From assembly GCA_945860895.1 (NCBI GenBank), contig CAMASK010000020.1, positions 1 to 40,984 of the forward strand: a stretch of DNA of 40,984 nucleotides. The letters run 5' to 3'. A program made the translations under genes and the position numbers. Position 1 is the first letter of the stretch. Each line of letters opens with the position of its first letter. Positions 24,460 through 40,841 of this stretch are shown here, piece after piece. Under the pieces are notes generated by a model that was not told the origin of the DNA, ran no database searches, and saw only the letters and a list, made by a program, of their open reading frames with translations. This DNA is from Bacteriovorax stolpii (GTDB lineage: Bacteria > Bdellovibrionota > Bacteriovoracia > Bacteriovoracales > Bacteriovoracaceae).

Positions 24460-25101
24460 ATGAAATACCTTTTCTTATTTTTGTTAATCCTCAATTCTCT
24501 GGCCCTTGCTCAACCCTATCCGGCCGAATGGTTTAAGCCGGTAAATCCACAAGGCGCACCTGCTTGGGAAATTCTTCCTCAAGCAGCTGCTCCAGGTGAA
24601 GTGATACTTTCTAAAAGAACTGAATTAGGAATCCTATCAAACTTTGCAGCGACACCATTCGTGTATAAAGAAAAGCTTTATGCCAGTGTTGAGGGATTCT
24701 GGCAGATGATGAAATATCCAGAAGGCTCCTCTGATCCACGATCGGTAAAAATTTATCCATTCACACGTGATGAAGTTTCGGCCATGACTGCCTTTGAAGC
24801 AAAAGAGGCCGGCAGTGTCGCCAGTGCTATCATGAAAGAGTTAGGAATTAACTGGGTGACGTTTGAAGGTATCCAAATGGTCTACTGCACTCTCGAACCT
24901 GGACTTCATTATGAGCTCATTCTGGATGCGATGAGGGCCAAATTGAAACAGAATCCTGAAGTGAAAAGAATTCTCCTTGCTACCGGTGACTTAATCCTTC
25001 GACCTGATCATCATGATGAGGGTTGCAAAGCACAGGAATGGAAATATTATGAATTATGGATGATTTTGAGGGCCGAACTCACTTCTTCTTATTCTTTTTA
25101 A
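24460..25101 (+). CDS. Exported NADAR-domain protein
   Basis: 213 residues. Residues 1-18 form a clear signal peptide (MKYLFLFLLILNSLALAQ). The NADAR domain covers about 50-205: LGILSNFAATPFVYKEKLYA, SVEGFWQMMKYPEG, KELGINWVTFEG, NPEVKRILLATGDLILRPDH and the final YYELWMILR. NADAR proteins are ADP-ribose N-glycosidases or hydrolases, known to remove ADP-ribose from guanine and from NAD-related metabolites, and are normally cytosolic. A leader on this domain is unusual. The 3' end overlaps the convergent cytochrome c gene by 23 bp. Confidence 0.8.
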   Translation: MKYLFLFLLILNSLALAQPYPAEWFKPVNPQGAPAWEILPQAAAPGEVILSKRTELGILSNFAATPFVYKEKLYASVEGFWQMMKYPEGSSDPRSVKIYPFTRDEVSAMTAFEAKEAGSVASAIMKELGINWVTFEGIQMVYCTLEPGLHYELILDAMRAKLKQNPEVKRILLATGDLILRPDHHDEGCKAQEWKYYELWMILRAELTSSYSF

Positions 25102-25426
25102 CGGACTGAACCCAGGCGTAGATATCGGGAATATCTTTTTGAAGCTTAGGAATCTTTCTCATCACTTTCGTCGTTCTCTTAGGCACATATCCAGCTGGCA
25201 ATTTTGCCGGATACAGCCCAGTCATAACTTTAGAAGTCATCACTTCTAAAGGAGCATCAACCATTTCCGGACCAAGACTACCTTTAAGATTGGGATCACG
25301 ATTATGACATTGAATACAATTAGCGAGGTAAAGACGTTTACCCTTCTCCAAGTTAGGCTTAGCGATTATAGAACTTGAAATAAAAAGGGTGCTTAGAAAA
25401 GCACCCTTAATAAGACTTAACTTCAT
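25079..25426 (-). CDS. Cytochrome c, monoheme, paralogue 1
   Basis: 115 residues from ATG 25426. Signal peptide MKLSLIKGAFLSTLFISSS and one heme motif (NCIQCHNRDPN). The rest, LKGSLGPEMVDAPLEVMTSK and the PAGYVPKRTTKVMRK segment, is nearly the same as in the upstream gene, so this is a tandem duplication. The ATG shares a base with the previous stop (TAATG), with GGTGAG upstream. It should shuttle electrons for the urate-oxidase-type membrane protein. A TTG at 25450 is possible but inside the upstream gene. Confidence 0.88.
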   Translation of the reverse strand: MKLSLIKGAFLSTLFISSSIIAKPNLEKGKRLYLANCIQCHNRDPNLKGSLGPEMVDAPLEVMTSKVMTGLYPAKLPAGYVPKRTTKVMRKIPKLQKDIPDIYAWVQSVKKNKKK

Positions 25427-25878
25427 TATTTTCTCACCGACTGTATCCAAGCATGGATAGAAGGCACATCTTTTTCAAGATTTGGGAACTTTCTCATTTG
25501 CTTGGTTTTTCGTTTCGGTACAAAGCCCGCAGGTAAAACTTCTGGATAACGACCAGTAACAACTTTAACTGTCATAACTTCCAGAGGAGCATCAATTAGC
25601 TCAGGACCTATGGCACCTTTAATATTTGGATCCTTGTTGTGGCAACTGATACAGTTAGACATAAAAAGAGTTCTTCCTCTTTCAATATTAACTTCAGTCG
25701 TGGCCACCTCATGAACCCCCGTCTCTGCTCCAGGGGCCTCGGCTTCTTCGGTTTTTGTCACTTCAGTGACTGGAGCTTCTTCAACAACTTTTACGTGCTC
25801 CGGAGCTTTAACGGGAACCGAGACTATAATAAACAAATAAAGGGCACCAAGGGTGCCCAGAAGAATTACTGAATTCAT
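25426..25878 (-). CDS. Cytochrome c, membrane-anchored, paralogue 2
   Basis: 150 residues. An uncleaved-looking N-terminal anchor (about 3-20) is followed by an acidic, proline- and glutamate-rich linker (about 25-65, for example VEEAPVTEVTKTEEAEAPG) and one heme domain (NCISCHNKDPN). The domain is a paralogue of the next gene's product. The ATG shares a base with the stop of the membrane protein gene. The linker would let the heme domain swing, as in electron carriers tethered to a membrane oxidase. Confidence 0.88.
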   Translation of the reverse strand: MNSVILLGTLGALYLFIIVSVPVKAPEHVKVVEEAPVTEVTKTEEAEAPGAETGVHEVATTEVNIERGRTLFMSNCISCHNKDPNIKGAIGPELIDAPLEVMTVKVVTGRYPEVLPAGFVPKRKTKQMRKFPNLEKDVPSIHAWIQSVRK

Positions 25879-37050: not shown

Positions 37051-37568
37051 CTAATTTCTAGACTTTAGACCAATTTTCTTACGGTTAGGTTTAAGAATCG
37101 GTGCTTCATCTTCAATTGAGTCAAGTCTTTCGAATACTACTTTAAAAAGCTTATTCGTCCCATCTTCCAATTTGCTAATTCGGTCTGACAGAGAGCTCTC
37201 CATGACTAAAAAACTTCTAAGACGCGTAAAAATCCTCATTATGGCGATATTGACCTGAACTGCACGAGCTGAGCTAAGGACTCCAGACAACATGGCCAAT
37301 CCATTCTCCGTAAAAACTAACGGTAATTTCTGTTTACCACCCTACCTACCTTTGAAGTCACAGATTGTGACTTCAAAGCCTGATACTCTTCAGAGGTTAA
37401 CTGAAACATAAAGTCTTTAGGAAATCGGTCCAAGTTACGTCTCACAGCTTGGTTTAGCGCCTTAGTTTCAACTTCATAAAGCTCAGCAAGATCTGAATCA
37501 AGCATGACCTTCTGGCCACGAACAACATAGATCATATTTTCAATCTTAGATAAATTAATTTCACGCAT
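37051..37568 (-). pseudogene. ORF6N-domain DNA-binding protein gene, one-base frameshift
   Basis: The N-terminal half has the ORF6N core IENMIYVVRGQKVMLDSDLA, ELYEVETKALNQAVRRNLDR and FPKDFMFQLTSEEYQALKSQ, then stops. In another frame the usual continuation follows: QKLPLVFTENGLAMLSGVLS, ARAVQVNIAIMRIFTRLR, and a coiled-coil C-terminus with LFKVVFERLDSIED. Adding one C to the CCC run at 37340-37342 (plus strand) restores GRGGKQKLPLVFTEN, the expected family sequence. ORF6N proteins are found in phages and as mobile regulators. GGGAG precedes the ATG. Either a true frameshift or a sequencing error. Confidence 0.85.
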
Positions 37569-37823: not shown

Positions 37824-37957
37824 AAGGACAGTCTGAATTAACCCTATATCCGCATAACTCAAAAAGCATCAATCCCCCTTTTTTAGGAATCGGATGACCT
37901 TCGGTCTCACCTTTAAAGGAAATCTTCACGGCTTTTTGTCGGATTCGGCTGAATTTT
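37824..37957 (-). repeat. Dispersed repeat element, copy A (inverted)
   Basis: 134 bp, read on the minus strand from AAAATTCAGCCGAATCCGAC to GACTGTCCTT. It is the inverted counterpart of copy B at 38724-38857, nearly identical over most of its length, and shares its second half with copy C. It contains GACC-GAA-GGTC (small hairpin) and an outer pair CAAAAAGC ... GCTTTTTG. An ORF through it reads GHPIPKKGGLMLFELCGYRV, but the other copies are shifted by one base at this point, so I do not treat it as coding. Confidence 0.85.
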
Positions 37958-37980
37958 ACTTCAGTTCATTCCATAGAAAT

Positions 37981-38121
37981 TTATTCTAAGGTCAATTTCT
38001 GAATGGAGAAAGTCTGCTTCAGAAGGACATCCTTTGGAATAAAAATATTACCGTCCGTACAGTCATAATCAGAGTCATAACTGCTGCAGCCTTTGCCCCA
38101 GGAATTACGAACAACAAAAGA
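37981..38121 (-). pseudogene. 3' remnant of a papain-type (C1) peptidase gene
   Basis: 47 codons ending in TAA at 37981, reading SFVVRNSWGKGCSSYDSDYD then CTDGNIFIPKDVLLK. The VVRNSWG block with following cysteines and a GNIFIP strand is the end of a C1-family cysteine peptidase, where the asparagine is part of the active site. The stop codon TAG precedes it in frame, and the preceding residues (EARVGFS in another frame) may belong to the same gene after one frameshift. The catalytic Cys and His regions are not present. Copy A of the repeat begins 23 bp beyond its stop. Confidence 0.6.
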
Positions 38122-38511
38122 CTAAACCCTACTCGTGCTTCACATGAAGTCTCATATAAAAACGTTGGTATTATTTTGCCAAATAATATTAAACAAAAAC
38201 CTGCCAGCGCTTCTTCTCTTTATCGAGTAAGCACCATTGAAGTTTGGCCGGCTATTCTATCGTGACGCTCTCATCTCGCCGTTTGCAGCCTTCCGCTTAG
38301 AGTCTTCTGGCCTTCGTTTTAAACTCTAGTAATCGTTGTTATACGTTCCTCTCCATGACATCCACCGATTGGCCCCGATTCTCGTCAGCAAGCGTATCAA
38401 GAACATACGTGCTCTATTTTCACGGTCTGCAGTCATTATGATATCACAGAACATTTGCGGTATAATAACCATGCCAAATAATAGATTTTGAACTTGGGTG
38501 GTTAAGCTGCC
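38122..38511. other. Non-coding stretch with no supported gene
   Basis: 390 bp, somewhat richer in GC than the neighbourhood, without a plausible gene. One 48-codon minus-strand ORF (38472-38326, reading MVIIPQMFCDIIMTADRENR at its start) has no ribosome site or recognisable domain. It is probably decayed sequence upstream of the C1 peptidase remnant. Confidence 0.5.
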
Positions 38512-38745
38512 TTAGAATTGGTTTGCCTCTATATACGAGTAGAGTTTAGTCTGACCAAAAGGGCCGTCTTTTAGGTTGGTTTGACGGGAATCTACTATCA
38601 GCTTGCTTGAAATTAATTGAATCATCTTAATTAGCCTGTAGGTCATACCACTGGCTTTGAGTTTTCGTATAAGAGCCACTGCTCCCAAAATTGTGAAGAC
38701 GGCCTTAAATAAGAGAATCCATAAAATTTCTGCCGAATGCGACAA
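38512..38745 (-). CDS. Doubtful ORF, 77 aa
   Basis: Begins with TTG inside repeat copy B and reads ILWILLFKAVFTILGAVALI, a hydrophobic segment, then a basic helical part. No ribosome site and no family recognised. Since its first codons come from the repeat, it is more likely the remains of a gene than a functional one. Confidence 0.2.
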   Translation of the reverse strand: MSHSAEILWILLFKAVFTILGAVALIRKLKASGMTYRLIKMIQLISSKLIVDSRQTNLKDGPFGQTKLYSYIEANQF

Positions 38746-38857
38746 AAAGCCGTGATAATTTTCCCTTAATAGAGTGACCGAAGGTCATCCGATTCCTAAA
38801 GATGGTGGGCCCTGCTTTTTGAGTTGTGCTGATATAGGGTTAATTCAGACTGTCCTT
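38724..38857 (+). repeat. Dispersed repeat element, copy B
   Basis: 134 bp from AAAATTTCTGCCGAATGCGA to GACTGTCCTT. Structured parts: TGACC-GAA-GGTCA (38775-38787) and an outer pair CAAAAAGC (38743-38750) with GCTTTTTG (38814-38821), both also possible in copy A. The last 40 bases (GATATAGGGTTAATTCAGAC then TGTCCTT) are the most conserved part in all three copies. An in-frame reading GHPIPKDGGPCFLSCADIGL is offset by one from copy A. Confidence 0.85.
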
Positions 38858-38898
38858 TCTGTTCTCCATTTAGGTGAAGCTACTCTCATGTTAAAAAG

Positions 38899-39090
38899 AT
38901 GGAGACGGAATGGGTAACAAGCGAGGCTGAATTACTGGAAAATTTAGATACCGAAAGCGGAGGCAAATGCTGGGTAGCACTTAACTGTTTCGGATGGGTA
39001 ATTTGGGTGGTATCATTAGTTACCGCTGGCAAATTCGTCTCCCTTCCTTTCTGGCGAGTCATCGATGAAAATAACAATATAAATAGTTAA
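38899..39090 (+). CDS. Small hypothetical membrane protein
   Basis: 63 residues, not recognised. METEWVTSEAELLENLDTES is acidic; then a tryptophan-rich hydrophobic helix (WVALNCFGWVIWVVSLVTAG) and a short tail. No clear ribosome site before the ATG. The stop is 13 bp before the next gene, whose AAGGAG follows at once, so it may be the first gene of a two-gene unit starting just past repeat B. Confidence 0.35.
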   Translation: METEWVTSEAELLENLDTESGGKCWVALNCFGWVIWVVSLVTAGKFVSLPFWRVIDENNNINS

Positions 39091-39103
39091 TAAGGAGAAC
39101 CCA

Positions 39104-39721
39104 TTGAAGTTTTTTTTTATGCTTGTTTTATTATTAAGTTCAGTTAATGCCCTTGCATCCAGAGCTTCCGAGATTTTGAATAAGTATGCTAACTCAGACT
39201 TAGTCAAAAATACTTTGGAAAATATTGAAAATCAACATGGAGTGACCTGTACCAGCGGAAAACCTCACGGTTTTTTTCCTCGAGTATTTGGTTCTGTTTG
39301 GAATGTAAGTTACTGTCACAAGTTGGGTGTAAAAATCAAAGTGAGAATCAGCAGTTCGTTTAAAAATGATAATGAACCCGTTTTTGTATTGGAAAGATTG
39401 AAAGTGAAAGCTATTTGGGGGAACGTTCAGTCGGAAGAGACTCATGAGCAGCATCTTTTATCTGATCCATTTGTGGATGCCTTCAAGAAGTCGGAACTCG
39501 TGCGCAGTTTAAGACACATGGTTGAAGATGATTACAAAATCGTCTGCTCGCAGGGAAAAGCAAGAAGAGGCACCTTCTTGGGCAAAGCAAATTATTTTTA
39601 TAAGGTGAACTGCAAGAGCGATACTGCGAGTTTTAAATTAAAAGTTAAAGCACGGGTTCAGATTATTGGAGATGATGTTTTCAAATTTAGATTGAAGAAT
39701 TACAAAGTCATACGGTCATAA
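39104..39721 (+). CDS. Exported protein with a duplicated cysteine domain
   Basis: 205 residues from a TTG with AAGGAGAA upstream. Signal peptide MKFFFMLVLLLSSVNALA. Two tandem copies of a domain of about 74 residues: 31-104 and 130-203. Both begin with S-D/E-LV-K/R, carry VxC(T/S)xGK with C49 or C148, a second cysteine exactly 22 residues later (C71, C170), a K-x-KV-x-A/R strand and a final LK-V/N-K/Y. So each domain probably has one disulfide. I do not know the family. Followed by a strong hairpin. Confidence 0.7.
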   Translation: MKFFFMLVLLLSSVNALASRASEILNKYANSDLVKNTLENIENQHGVTCTSGKPHGFFPRVFGSVWNVSYCHKLGVKIKVRISSSFKNDNEPVFVLERLKVKAIWGNVQSEETHEQHLLSDPFVDAFKKSELVRSLRHMVEDDYKIVCSQGKARRGTFLGKANYFYKVNCKSDTASFKLKVKARVQIIGDDVFKFRLKNYKVIRS

Positions 39722-39730
39722 AAATAACTC

Positions 39731-39762
39731 GTAATGACTGTTCAAAGTTTGGACAGTCATTA
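39731..39762 (+). terminator. 11-bp hairpin downstream of the duplicated-domain gene
   Basis: GTAATGACTGT (39731-39741) / ACAGTCATTAC (39752-39762), perfect, ten-base loop. No T run follows, so it is a weak intrinsic terminator or an mRNA 3'-end stabiliser. The ATG at 39734 lies inside its left arm and is unlikely to start a protein. Confidence 0.6.
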
Positions 39763-39832
39763 CTCAAAACGACATAAACTGATCCAACAATCTTTTTCTA
39801 ATTTAATTAAGAATTTCTTCTATTTGAGTCCC

Positions 39833-39985
39833 TTGAATTTGGTTATACCATTAATCGTACTCGGGTCTTTATCCTCTTTGGCAGTGGCGAGTGAGAATTG
39901 CGAGAATTCCGTCACACAAATCGAATTGAATGAGTGTTCCAGTGTTGCCCCCCCATCAACCTCTAGCTGCTGTAAAAAAATATAA
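39833..39985 (+). CDS. Short LprI-like exported peptide, probably truncated
   Basis: About 50 residues from TTG 39833 (GAG upstream), reading MNLVIPLIVLGSLSSLAVAS as leader. The mature start ENCENSVTQIELNECSSV looks like the beginning of an LprI/DUF1311 domain (C-x-N/A-x-x-T-x-x-E-L/M-N-x-C), which inhibits lysozyme in other bacteria. It then ends after a Ser/Pro stretch with CCKKI, far shorter than the usual domain. A run of seven C (39948-39954) sits at the break, so an indel may have caused it. A start at ATG 39734 is possible on paper but lies in a hairpin. Confidence 0.35.
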   Translation: MNLVIPLIVLGSLSSLAVASENCENSVTQIELNECSSVAPPSTSSCCKKI

Positions 39986-40103
39986 GATCCTGTAAAATCT
40001 TCAAGGTACCCACTTCTTTTTTATGCATGCATGGATTAGAAGGTACATTCACTTAGTAAAAGAGTCCGCTTAAAAATTAATATGATATTAAAGGGGAAAC
40101 ATT

Positions 40104-40685
40104 ATGAAAAAACTATATCTACTATGCTTTGCTTTAGCTTCATTTTCTGCCTTAGCGACAGATCCGGTAAAATCTATCCCTAAGGGAGTTGTGAGACAAG
40201 GCACAATATCCAGCGCAATTTATGAATTTAATAAAATCGAATATCGTGAGCATGATGGTTTCAAACCTCGTAAAGATAAAAAAGTTTTTGTTACACTTTC
40301 TGGTATTACTCAAAAAAGGAATTCAGCTTATTCAAATAATGTGGGACAAAGCGGAGCCGAAAATCTTGGAGGGCCAGCTACGGATATAAAGACTTCATTG
40401 AACATAGTAATTAATGATGGTGTTCAAAGTTACAGCTGCCTCTTGAGTTCTTCAATGCTAAGTGATGGCTTCGATTCCATTGGTTATGATCAAGAAGAGC
40501 TTAAGTGTGATAAAGAGTTCAACAACGGAAAGGGTAGAATGATTATCAGACTAATTGATAATAGTGAAAACCGAGTTGAAGGTATTCAGCCGTATTATGA
40601 ACTTATATTAAAATTATATGAAGATCGTGGAATTTTCAGAACAAATAGAGATATTTATTTCGAAGCTCAAATTAATGCCAAATAA
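40104..40685 (+). CDS. Exported hypothetical protein
   Basis: 193 residues, not recognised. Signal peptide MKKLYLLCFALASFSALA; AGGGGAAAC before the ATG. The mature part is mixed beta (KVFVTLSGITQKRN, TSLNIVINDGVQSYSCLLSS, GRMIIRLIDN, YYELILKLYEDRGI) with two cysteines that could pair. Similar in style to the other small exported proteins of this end of the window. Confidence 0.65.
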   Translation: MKKLYLLCFALASFSALATDPVKSIPKGVVRQGTISSAIYEFNKIEYREHDGFKPRKDKKVFVTLSGITQKRNSAYSNNVGQSGAENLGGPATDIKTSLNIVINDGVQSYSCLLSSSMLSDGFDSIGYDQEELKCDKEFNNGKGRMIIRLIDNSENRVEGIQPYYELILKLYEDRGIFRTNRDIYFEAQINAK

Positions 40686-40692
40686 TGTGATT

Positions 40693-40727
40693 GAGAGCAA
40701 ATGATATGAGTAATATTATTTGCTCTC
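40693..40727 (+). terminator. Hairpin downstream of the 40104 gene
   Basis: GAGAGCAAAT (40693-40702) / ATTTGCTCTC (40718-40727), 10 bp perfect, extended inward by further AT pairs. No clear T run follows, but it stands directly behind the stop codon. Confidence 0.65.
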
Positions 40728-40752
40728 TCACCCATTCTTAATTTTATATTTT

Positions 40753-40841
40753 AGAGTGAGACCGAACATCATCCTATCCTAAAAAGGGGGGATTTCTGTT
40801 TTTTGAGTTATACTGATATAGGGTTAATTCAGACTGTCCTT
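40753..40841 (+). repeat. Dispersed repeat element, copy C (shorter)
   Basis: 89 bp homologous to the second part of copies A and B, from AGAGTGAGACCGAA to GACTGTCCTT, same orientation as B. The GGTC arm of the small hairpin has mutated (GAACATCATCC) and the first 40 bp of the element are absent. It is joined directly to the uppP remnant. Confidence 0.75.

What the first reader, a model, noticed from the sequence alone, without database searches (positions are those of the whole stretch)
37824..40841. Three copies of an unrecognised 90-134 bp structured repeat
Copies A (37824-37957, inverted), B (38724-38857) and C (40753-40841) share long identical blocks, above all GATATAGGGTTAATTCAGAC then TGTCC. 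Small indels shift the reading frame between copies, so conservation is at DNA or RNA level. Copies A and B keep two pairing segments, a GACC-GAA-GGTC hairpin and CAAAAAGC with GCTTTTTG. They lie near or against gene remnants. I recognise no described family. It may be a MITE-like mobile element, a REP-like element or a repeated small RNA.
Basis: partly seen in the sequence, partly recalled or inferred. Interest (0 to 1): 0.85.

Follow-up and report, generated by a model that had tools for sequence, protein, structure and literature searches.

The report
Unnamed DNA-joining repeat forming cassettes
A 154-letter repeat in a predatory bacterium sits at the seams between unrelated DNA pieces, often in one-way rows, and nearly the same sequence lies beside antibiotic-resistance genes in E. 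coli, Salmonella and Acinetobacter plasmids.

Summary
The repeat is real. It is 154 bp long with fixed ends. The window's genome has 20 matches, and 13 of 26 genomes of its genus (Bacteriovorax-like predators) have at least one. Copies form one-way rows: 62 of 71 neighbouring pairs share orientation. The DNA between copies holds toxin-antitoxin and secreted-protein genes, or pieces of genes cut at the repeat's edge (trpS, glutamine synthetase) that are whole in relatives without the repeat. It is not a canonical integron: 0 of 54 copies carry attC boxes, no integron integrase passes its cut-off in 26 genomes, folding is at chance. It is not a classical MITE: no target duplication. The same element, 94% identical to a copy in this genome, is in 19 of 72,556 plasmid records and 9 of 5,426 complete E. 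coli genomes. In the records viewed it joins a 2.4-kb tet(M) fragment, or tet(X6)-estT, to other DNA with the same kinds of seam. Best reading: a small mobile joining site that builds cassette arrays, worked by an unidentified recombinase. The mechanism is not settled.

The parts
37824..37961 (-). Copy A of the 154-bp element (model 17-150); outer left end diverged; central hairpin 37896-37906
38550..38633 (-). Solo left module (model 3-73), head to head with copy B and abutting the 435-bp repeat
38704..38857 (+). Copy B, complete (model 1-150); central hairpin 38776-38786
40750..40841 (+). Copy C, right part with hairpin region (model 62-150); left part missing
38858..40749 (.). Cargo (cassette) between copies B and C: ORFs 39104-39721, 39734-39985 and 40104-40685, all plus strand; the first and third give no Pfam match
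38117..38552 (.). Second, unrelated ~435-bp repeat with 18-bp inverted ends, adjoining the solo left module

Best explanation
The repeat is a short non-coding joining site. Its two fixed outer ends (left TTAAATAAGA..., right ...CTT) become joined to arbitrary DNA fragments. Fragment plus site then behaves as a cassette, and cassettes accumulate head to tail with most sites in one direction, much as in an integron. SHOWN: fixed ends; one-way arrays; gaps from a few bp to 5.7 kb; cargo ends that cut genes at the site; no target duplication; no target homology beyond chance; the same seams in plasmid records described as complete. INFERRED: that cassettes move as units; that a recombinase acting in trans does it, probably breaking near the middle of the site, where many solo halves end; and that the family belongs to Bacteriovorax-like predators and was carried into resistance plasmids. 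NOT KNOWN: the enzyme, and how raw DNA is first joined to the site.
For: 129 HMM matches at E<=0.05 on the fetched contigs, 54 of them full length. Same orientation in 62 of 71 neighbouring pairs within 5 kb. G000:C88: three successive segments split by elements; segments 1 and 3 lie on different contigs of G025 (C8, C7) and segment 2 matches G001:C73 and G018:C217; segment 1's similarity starts 3 bp after one element and ends 4 bp into the next. trpS is cut at the left end in G000:C129, while 93.4% identical DNA in G001 reads on through an intact gene; a search of G000 found only a 32% identical paralogue of the 3' part. Glutamine synthetase is cut after 33 codons. Other pieces at seams: SDR, cyclase and a weak GH16 match, group II intron ends. 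Left and right arms come in several types and combinations. Of 24 left-only matches 12 end, and of 28 right-only matches 20 start, at model 69-101. Plasmids: a contiguous 2438-bp tet(M) fragment, 98.6% identical to a C. difficile plasmid, is joined to the element on one side and a left module on the other; it ends inside an HTH gene and inside the tet(M) leader. A resolvase gene is cut at the left end.
Against: No recombinase tracks the arrays: IntI over cut-off in 0 of 26 genomes; the tyrosine recombinase near a half-site in G025 has only 33-34% identical relatives in G000 and G001, the richest genomes; the IS91-like transposase is in 2 of 26. If crossover were always mid-site, the right arm of one site and the left arm of the next should be linked; they are not (1329 of 5000 shuffles as high), while arms within a site are linked overall (0 of 5000) though not within G001 alone (790 of 5000). 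Half of the left-only matches do not end near the middle, and some 'halves' may be arms of a type the model does not know. Most arrays are in draft metagenome genomes. No excised circle or movement was seen.
Confidence: 0.5

Rival explanations
1. End of an IS91/ISCR-type rolling-circle transposon. The element is the 3' (origin) end and arrays arise by one-ended transposition, which drags along neighbouring DNA of random length.
For: All 3 places found by protein search lie 44-45 bp upstream of an element in the same orientation (G000:C50, G001:C41, G001:C89); a fourth remnant touches the element in G000:C103. The C50 protein matches Y2_Tnp and Zn_Tnp_IS91. No target duplication and no inverted ends, as in that family (recalled). 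A hairpin lies near the break point of many solo halves.
Against: Transposase in only 2 of 26 genomes, with a further N-terminal piece in G002 cut by a solo right half. Both outer ends of the element, not one, are joined precisely to random DNA. The remnants precede elements of different arm types, as cargo would.
Confidence: 0.18
2. A miniature element working like IS26 (IS6 family): translocatable units of element plus adjacent DNA build direct-orientation arrays, and intramolecular transposition gives random cargo ends.
For: Precise element ends, random cargo ends, one-way arrays, no duplications. That IS26 arrays look like this is recalled; for PMC7986276 I saw only a search listing.
Against: Ends are not inverted repeats, which the IS6 family needs (recalled). 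Does not explain breaks near the element's middle. No partner IS was identified; no IS6 transposase search was made.
Confidence: 0.17
3. A variant integron: the elements are unusual attC sites of a lost or unsampled integrase (a CALIN).
For: One-way arrays with some toxin-antitoxin cargo; central hairpin.
Against: attC boxes in 0 of 54 copies on either strand, fold z about 0; no IntI over cut-off in 26 genomes, best 61 bits against 265; cargo ORFs 48 same and 51 opposite orientation. IntegronFinder reported none in Bacteriovorax sp. As-1 (PMC12642874, passages seen).
Confidence: 0.08
4. Dispersed repeat plus ordinary RecA recombination or misassembly at repeats: the seams are by-products.
For: Several contigs end inside elements or share exact 149-bp ends there; most hosts are draft genomes.
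Against: The same seam types are in complete plasmid records; misjoining would not give one-way rows such as the 15 plus-strand matches of G001:C41; the trpS 3' part was not found elsewhere, though the genome is 94.6% complete.
Confidence: 0.07

Closest known systems
Integron attC sites and cassette arrays without integrase (CALIN)
   Same: Short repeats in one direction separating small cargos; some toxin-antitoxin cargo; central hairpin
   Different: No R boxes, no attC fold, no IntI over cut-off, no bias of gene orientation, cargo often gene fragments
IS91/ISCR family (gene capture by rolling circle)
   Same: No inverted ends, no target duplication, unrelated DNA at its side; IS91-like transposase pieces beside four copies
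   Different: Both ends precise; transposase found in 2 of 26 genomes; element lacks a gene
IS26 (IS6 family) translocatable-unit arrays
   Same: One-way copies separated by cargo with random ends
   Different: 154 bp, no transposase gene, no terminal inverted repeats
MITEs and intergenic repeats (ERIC, Correia)
   Same: Short, non-coding, dispersed, 100-160 bp (sizes recalled)
   Different: No inverted ends or target duplication; sits at seams, in one-way arrays

Membership tests
Integron attC | R boxes RYYYAAC / GTTRRRY at the two ends | tested here: not met
   0 of 54 full copies have both, on either strand
Integron attC | stable single-strand fold (imperfect palindrome) | tested here: not met
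   DNA fold z mean 0.16 top and 0.36 bottom for 20 of 54 copies; no consensus fold on 34
Integron | IntI integrase in the genome | tested here: not met
   TIGR02249 over cut-off in 0 of 26 genus genomes; weak matches to other tyrosine recombinases in all 26 and in 14 of 14 control genomes; several genomes are incomplete
Integron | sites in one direction with cargo between | tested here: met
   62 of 71 neighbour pairs
Integron | cargo genes mostly in the orientation of the site | tested here: not met
   48 same, 51 opposite in 57 intervals
MITE (DDE type) | terminal inverted repeats | tested here: not met
   Read by eye from the alignment of 34 copies; only a weak gapped resemblance of the ends
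MITE (DDE type) | target-site duplication | tested here: not met
   4 bp or more in 1 of 48 copies, 2.7 expected
IS91/ISCR | associated HUH transposase | tested here: inconclusive
   Beside the element at all four 3' ends found, but protein matches in only 2 of 26 genomes
IS91/ISCR | one fixed end next to a target tetranucleotide | tested here: not met
   Both ends fixed; no strongly conserved flanking base in 48 copies, most common 24 of 48
IS26 / IS6 | IS6 transposase acting on inverted ends | not tested
   No search for an IS6 transposase was made
Known RNA family | match to an Rfam model | tested here: not met
   No match to the element at gathering score in 8 loci or to E 0.5 in the window and L154
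REP/BIME | TnpA-REP (RAYT) partner and tetranucleotide | not tested
   Element is far longer than REP (recalled)

The most novel reading that the evidence does not exclude
Bacteriovorax-like predators run a cassette-capture system independent of integron integrase. A 154-bp site is joined to arbitrary, including foreign, DNA fragments and stores them in one-way arrays. Its sites have reached resistance plasmids of E. coli, Salmonella and Acinetobacter, where they helped package tet(M) and tet(X6) fragments. The arrays would then catch the making of new cassettes, a step unexplained for integrons, in the act.
Probability: 0.28. Interest if true: 0.92.

Novelty: new variant of a known kind. Interest (0 to 1): 0.82.

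Why it matters
It would be a new route by which bacteria stitch arbitrary DNA into mobile cassettes, and a candidate joint behind the spread of some tet(M) and tet(X6) fragments on plasmids from livestock and people, where no annotated feature is listed under it (19 of 19 plasmid rows, 9 of 9 E. coli rows; the plasmid gene table is incomplete). It makes the origin of gene cassettes testable: cargo with cut genes can be compared with the uncut donor. It also ties predatory bacteria, which digest other bacteria, to resistance plasmids through a shared mobile element.

Tried and rejected
RNA element: folding no better than shuffles, no Rfam match to the element, no consensus fold. Target-site homology: native DNA at 3 left and 3 right seams does not resemble the element's ends beyond chance (best about 7% of random positions as good), although single cases look similar by eye. 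A transposon whose ends flank the cargo (right module - cargo - left module): arm types across cargo are not linked. Clean empty site: none among the fetched DNA; the hits were self or other repeats. Tyrosine recombinase of G025 as the array enzyme: in the other genomes it sits beside a small partner gene with no element nearby. 421-aa integrase of G001:C49: a relative is in G014 and a cut piece in G001:C41, more likely cargo. Phages: no match. Viral contigs: no exact match to one right-end pattern; the same pattern in 84,980 species genomes hit 9 stretches in two Bacteriovoracaceae MAGs only. Type-2 copy in plasmids: none. Other genera of the same family: 0 of 10; other families of the phylum: 2 of 22 with one weak 30-bp hit each. 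Literature searches listed no paper that by title or abstract describes this repeat; only passages of PMC12642874, PMC9668308, PMC9024848 and PMC11539080 were read, and most subscription journals are not covered.
Full report
OBSERVATION. The three copies exist. Searching the genome with copy B gave 11 matches, and with a better copy 22 at E<=1, 15 of them at E<1e-8. A sequence-only model built from 34 full copies (A1; R1) finds 20 matches in this genome at E<=0.01, and matches in 13 of 26 genomes of the genus; three of the 13 have one weak match only, and the richest, G001, has 70 (117 candidates scored per genome). Other genera of the family: 0 of 10; other families of the phylum: 2 of 22 with one weak 30-bp match each.

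ANATOMY. Aligned with their flanks, copies share sharp outer ends: left (C)TTAAATAAGA.., right ..TAATTCAGRCTGTCCTT or variants, about 154 bp apart, with unrelated flanks on both sides. The left arm has two main types and the right arm at least three, in several combinations. A hairpin sits at the centre in 34 of 54 full copies and is built from different letters in the two left-arm types. There are 24 left-only and 28 right-only matches (a few at contig ends or halves of one split copy); 12 and 20 of them break at model 69-101, around the hairpin and a run of G. In the window, B is complete, A has a diverged left edge, C lacks its left part, and a solo left module lies head to head with B.

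ARRAYS. On the contigs fetched because they hold matches, 62 of 71 neighbouring pairs within 5 kb share orientation; 6 of the 9 exceptions lie within 71 bp of each other, mostly head to head. G001:C41 has 15 plus-strand matches in 21 kb (and two short minus-strand ones), G001:C49 eight, all plus. Same-strand gaps reach 5.7 kb; 57 gaps of 0.2-5.8 kb have a median of 1.5 kb, 49 of them hold an ORF of 90 aa or more, and ORFs run 48 with and 51 against the element. Signal-peptide-like starts are only slightly commoner than elsewhere (29 of 99 against 75 of 349). Cargo and direct neighbours include HipA/HipB, HigA-type and HI1419/1420-type toxin-antitoxin genes, Fic, transporters and mobile-element pieces (95 of the 105 ORFs were scanned in 96-98). 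Several contigs end inside elements, so arrays may be longer than seen.

SEAMS. Elements stand where unrelated DNA meets. In G000:C129 a 1.78-kb stretch 93.4% identical to G001:C29 stops at the element's left end inside trpS; G001, G007 and G025 have the gene whole, and a search of G000 for its 3' part found only a 32% identical paralogue; that genome is 94.6% complete. In G000:C95 an amino-acid permease and the first 33 codons of a glutamine synthetase stop at the left end; in G001:C100 the synthetase is whole. In G000:C88 three consecutive segments separated by elements match different loci of relatives: segments 1 and 3 different contigs of G025, segment 2 G001:C73 and G018:C217. Other gene pieces end at element edges. 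In G011 the other part of the cut cyclase does not appear among the ORFs of the next 5 kb. So simple insertion into intact loci does not explain them. Target duplication is absent (1 of 48, 2.7 expected), and uncut targets do not resemble the element ends beyond chance.

PLASMIDS. A BLAST of one element copy against 72,556 plasmid records found its left module in 19 records. The full element is there: 18 records at 99% identity or more and one at 96% to the Salmonella copy; 10 Escherichia, 8 Salmonella, 1 Acinetobacter; 37 places. In complete E. coli genomes it is in 9 of 5,426, all 18 places on plasmids. The plasmid copy is 94.2% and 91.6% identical to the G000:C103 and C88 copies, while its median identity to the 54 full copies is about 60%, so it belongs to a type of this genome. 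In Salmonella NZ_CP039857 the order is intI1, a resolvase gene cut after 26 codons, full element, a cysteine-rich KTR gene and tet(M), a left module, the first ~46 bp of sul1 running backwards, and the region before a second intI1. The tet(M) stretch between the two elements is one contiguous 2438-bp piece, 98.6% identical to a C. difficile plasmid, whose ends fall inside an HTH gene and inside the leader-peptide gene and coincide with the element ends. The uncut resolvase reads on in a Nitrosomonas and an uncultured-bacterium plasmid. In A. baumannii NZ_CP048828 the element follows tet(X6)-estT and a cut ORF that looks like rteC (recalled; no Pfam match to the fragment). These records are titled complete, so the seam types are not artefacts of metagenome assembly. 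The four E. coli and Salmonella records viewed share one arrangement and look like one event that spread; the others were not viewed.

WHAT IT IS NOT. attC boxes: 0 of 54; fold z about 0; IntI over cut-off in 0 of 26 genomes. Bacteriovorax sp. As-1 was reported without integrons by IntegronFinder (PMC12642874, passages only). No Rfam family for the element. No phage match, and no exact-pattern match in viral contigs.

MECHANISM. Most likely the element is a joining site used by an enzyme acting in trans. One-way arrays, arm shuffling and mid-element half-sites fit site-specific recombination near the centre; random cargo joined to the fixed outer ends is the cassette-making step. Against this, arm types across a cargo are not linked and no recombinase tracks the arrays. 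IS91-like one-ended transposition is the best-documented alternative, because all four transposase 3' ends found lie at or just upstream of an element; IS26-like unit arrays are another. The arrays and seams are well supported; the enzymology is open.

Noticed in passing
window 38117-38552: A second repeat of about 435 bp with 18-bp inverted ends (AGACTAAACYCTACTCGT), at several other places in this genome and in relatives, often cut at or abutting the 154-bp element; identity unknown.
   Followed up: partly
L072 9312-10966 and relatives in L173-L186: A tyrosine recombinase of about 320-340 aa with a 183-227 aa partner gene beside it in 13 of 13 neighbourhoods listed; relatives of 53% identity or more in 14 of 26 genus genomes.
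   Followed up: partly
L154 4721-4796 and 5623-5676: Two group II intron 3' ends in the G001:C41 array, the second just below its family's gathering score and abutting an element's left edge.
   Followed up: partly
window 38117-38760 and L012 7161-7742: The window and contig C95 share a composite of the 435-bp repeat, a minus-strand left module and a plus-strand left end, as if an array segment were duplicated.
   Followed up: no
window 37317-37568: Short ORF6N-domain gene beside copy A, perhaps truncated; a stretch 80% identical lies in G022:C23.
   Followed up: no
window 25079-25878: Two adjacent related cytochrome c-like genes, DNA 70% identical over 208 bp.
   Followed up: partly
L014 5927-6075 and L015 1-149; L014 1-149 and L084 1-149: Exact 149-bp overlaps between contig ends, the first at an element, so the assembly graph branches there.
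   Followed up: no
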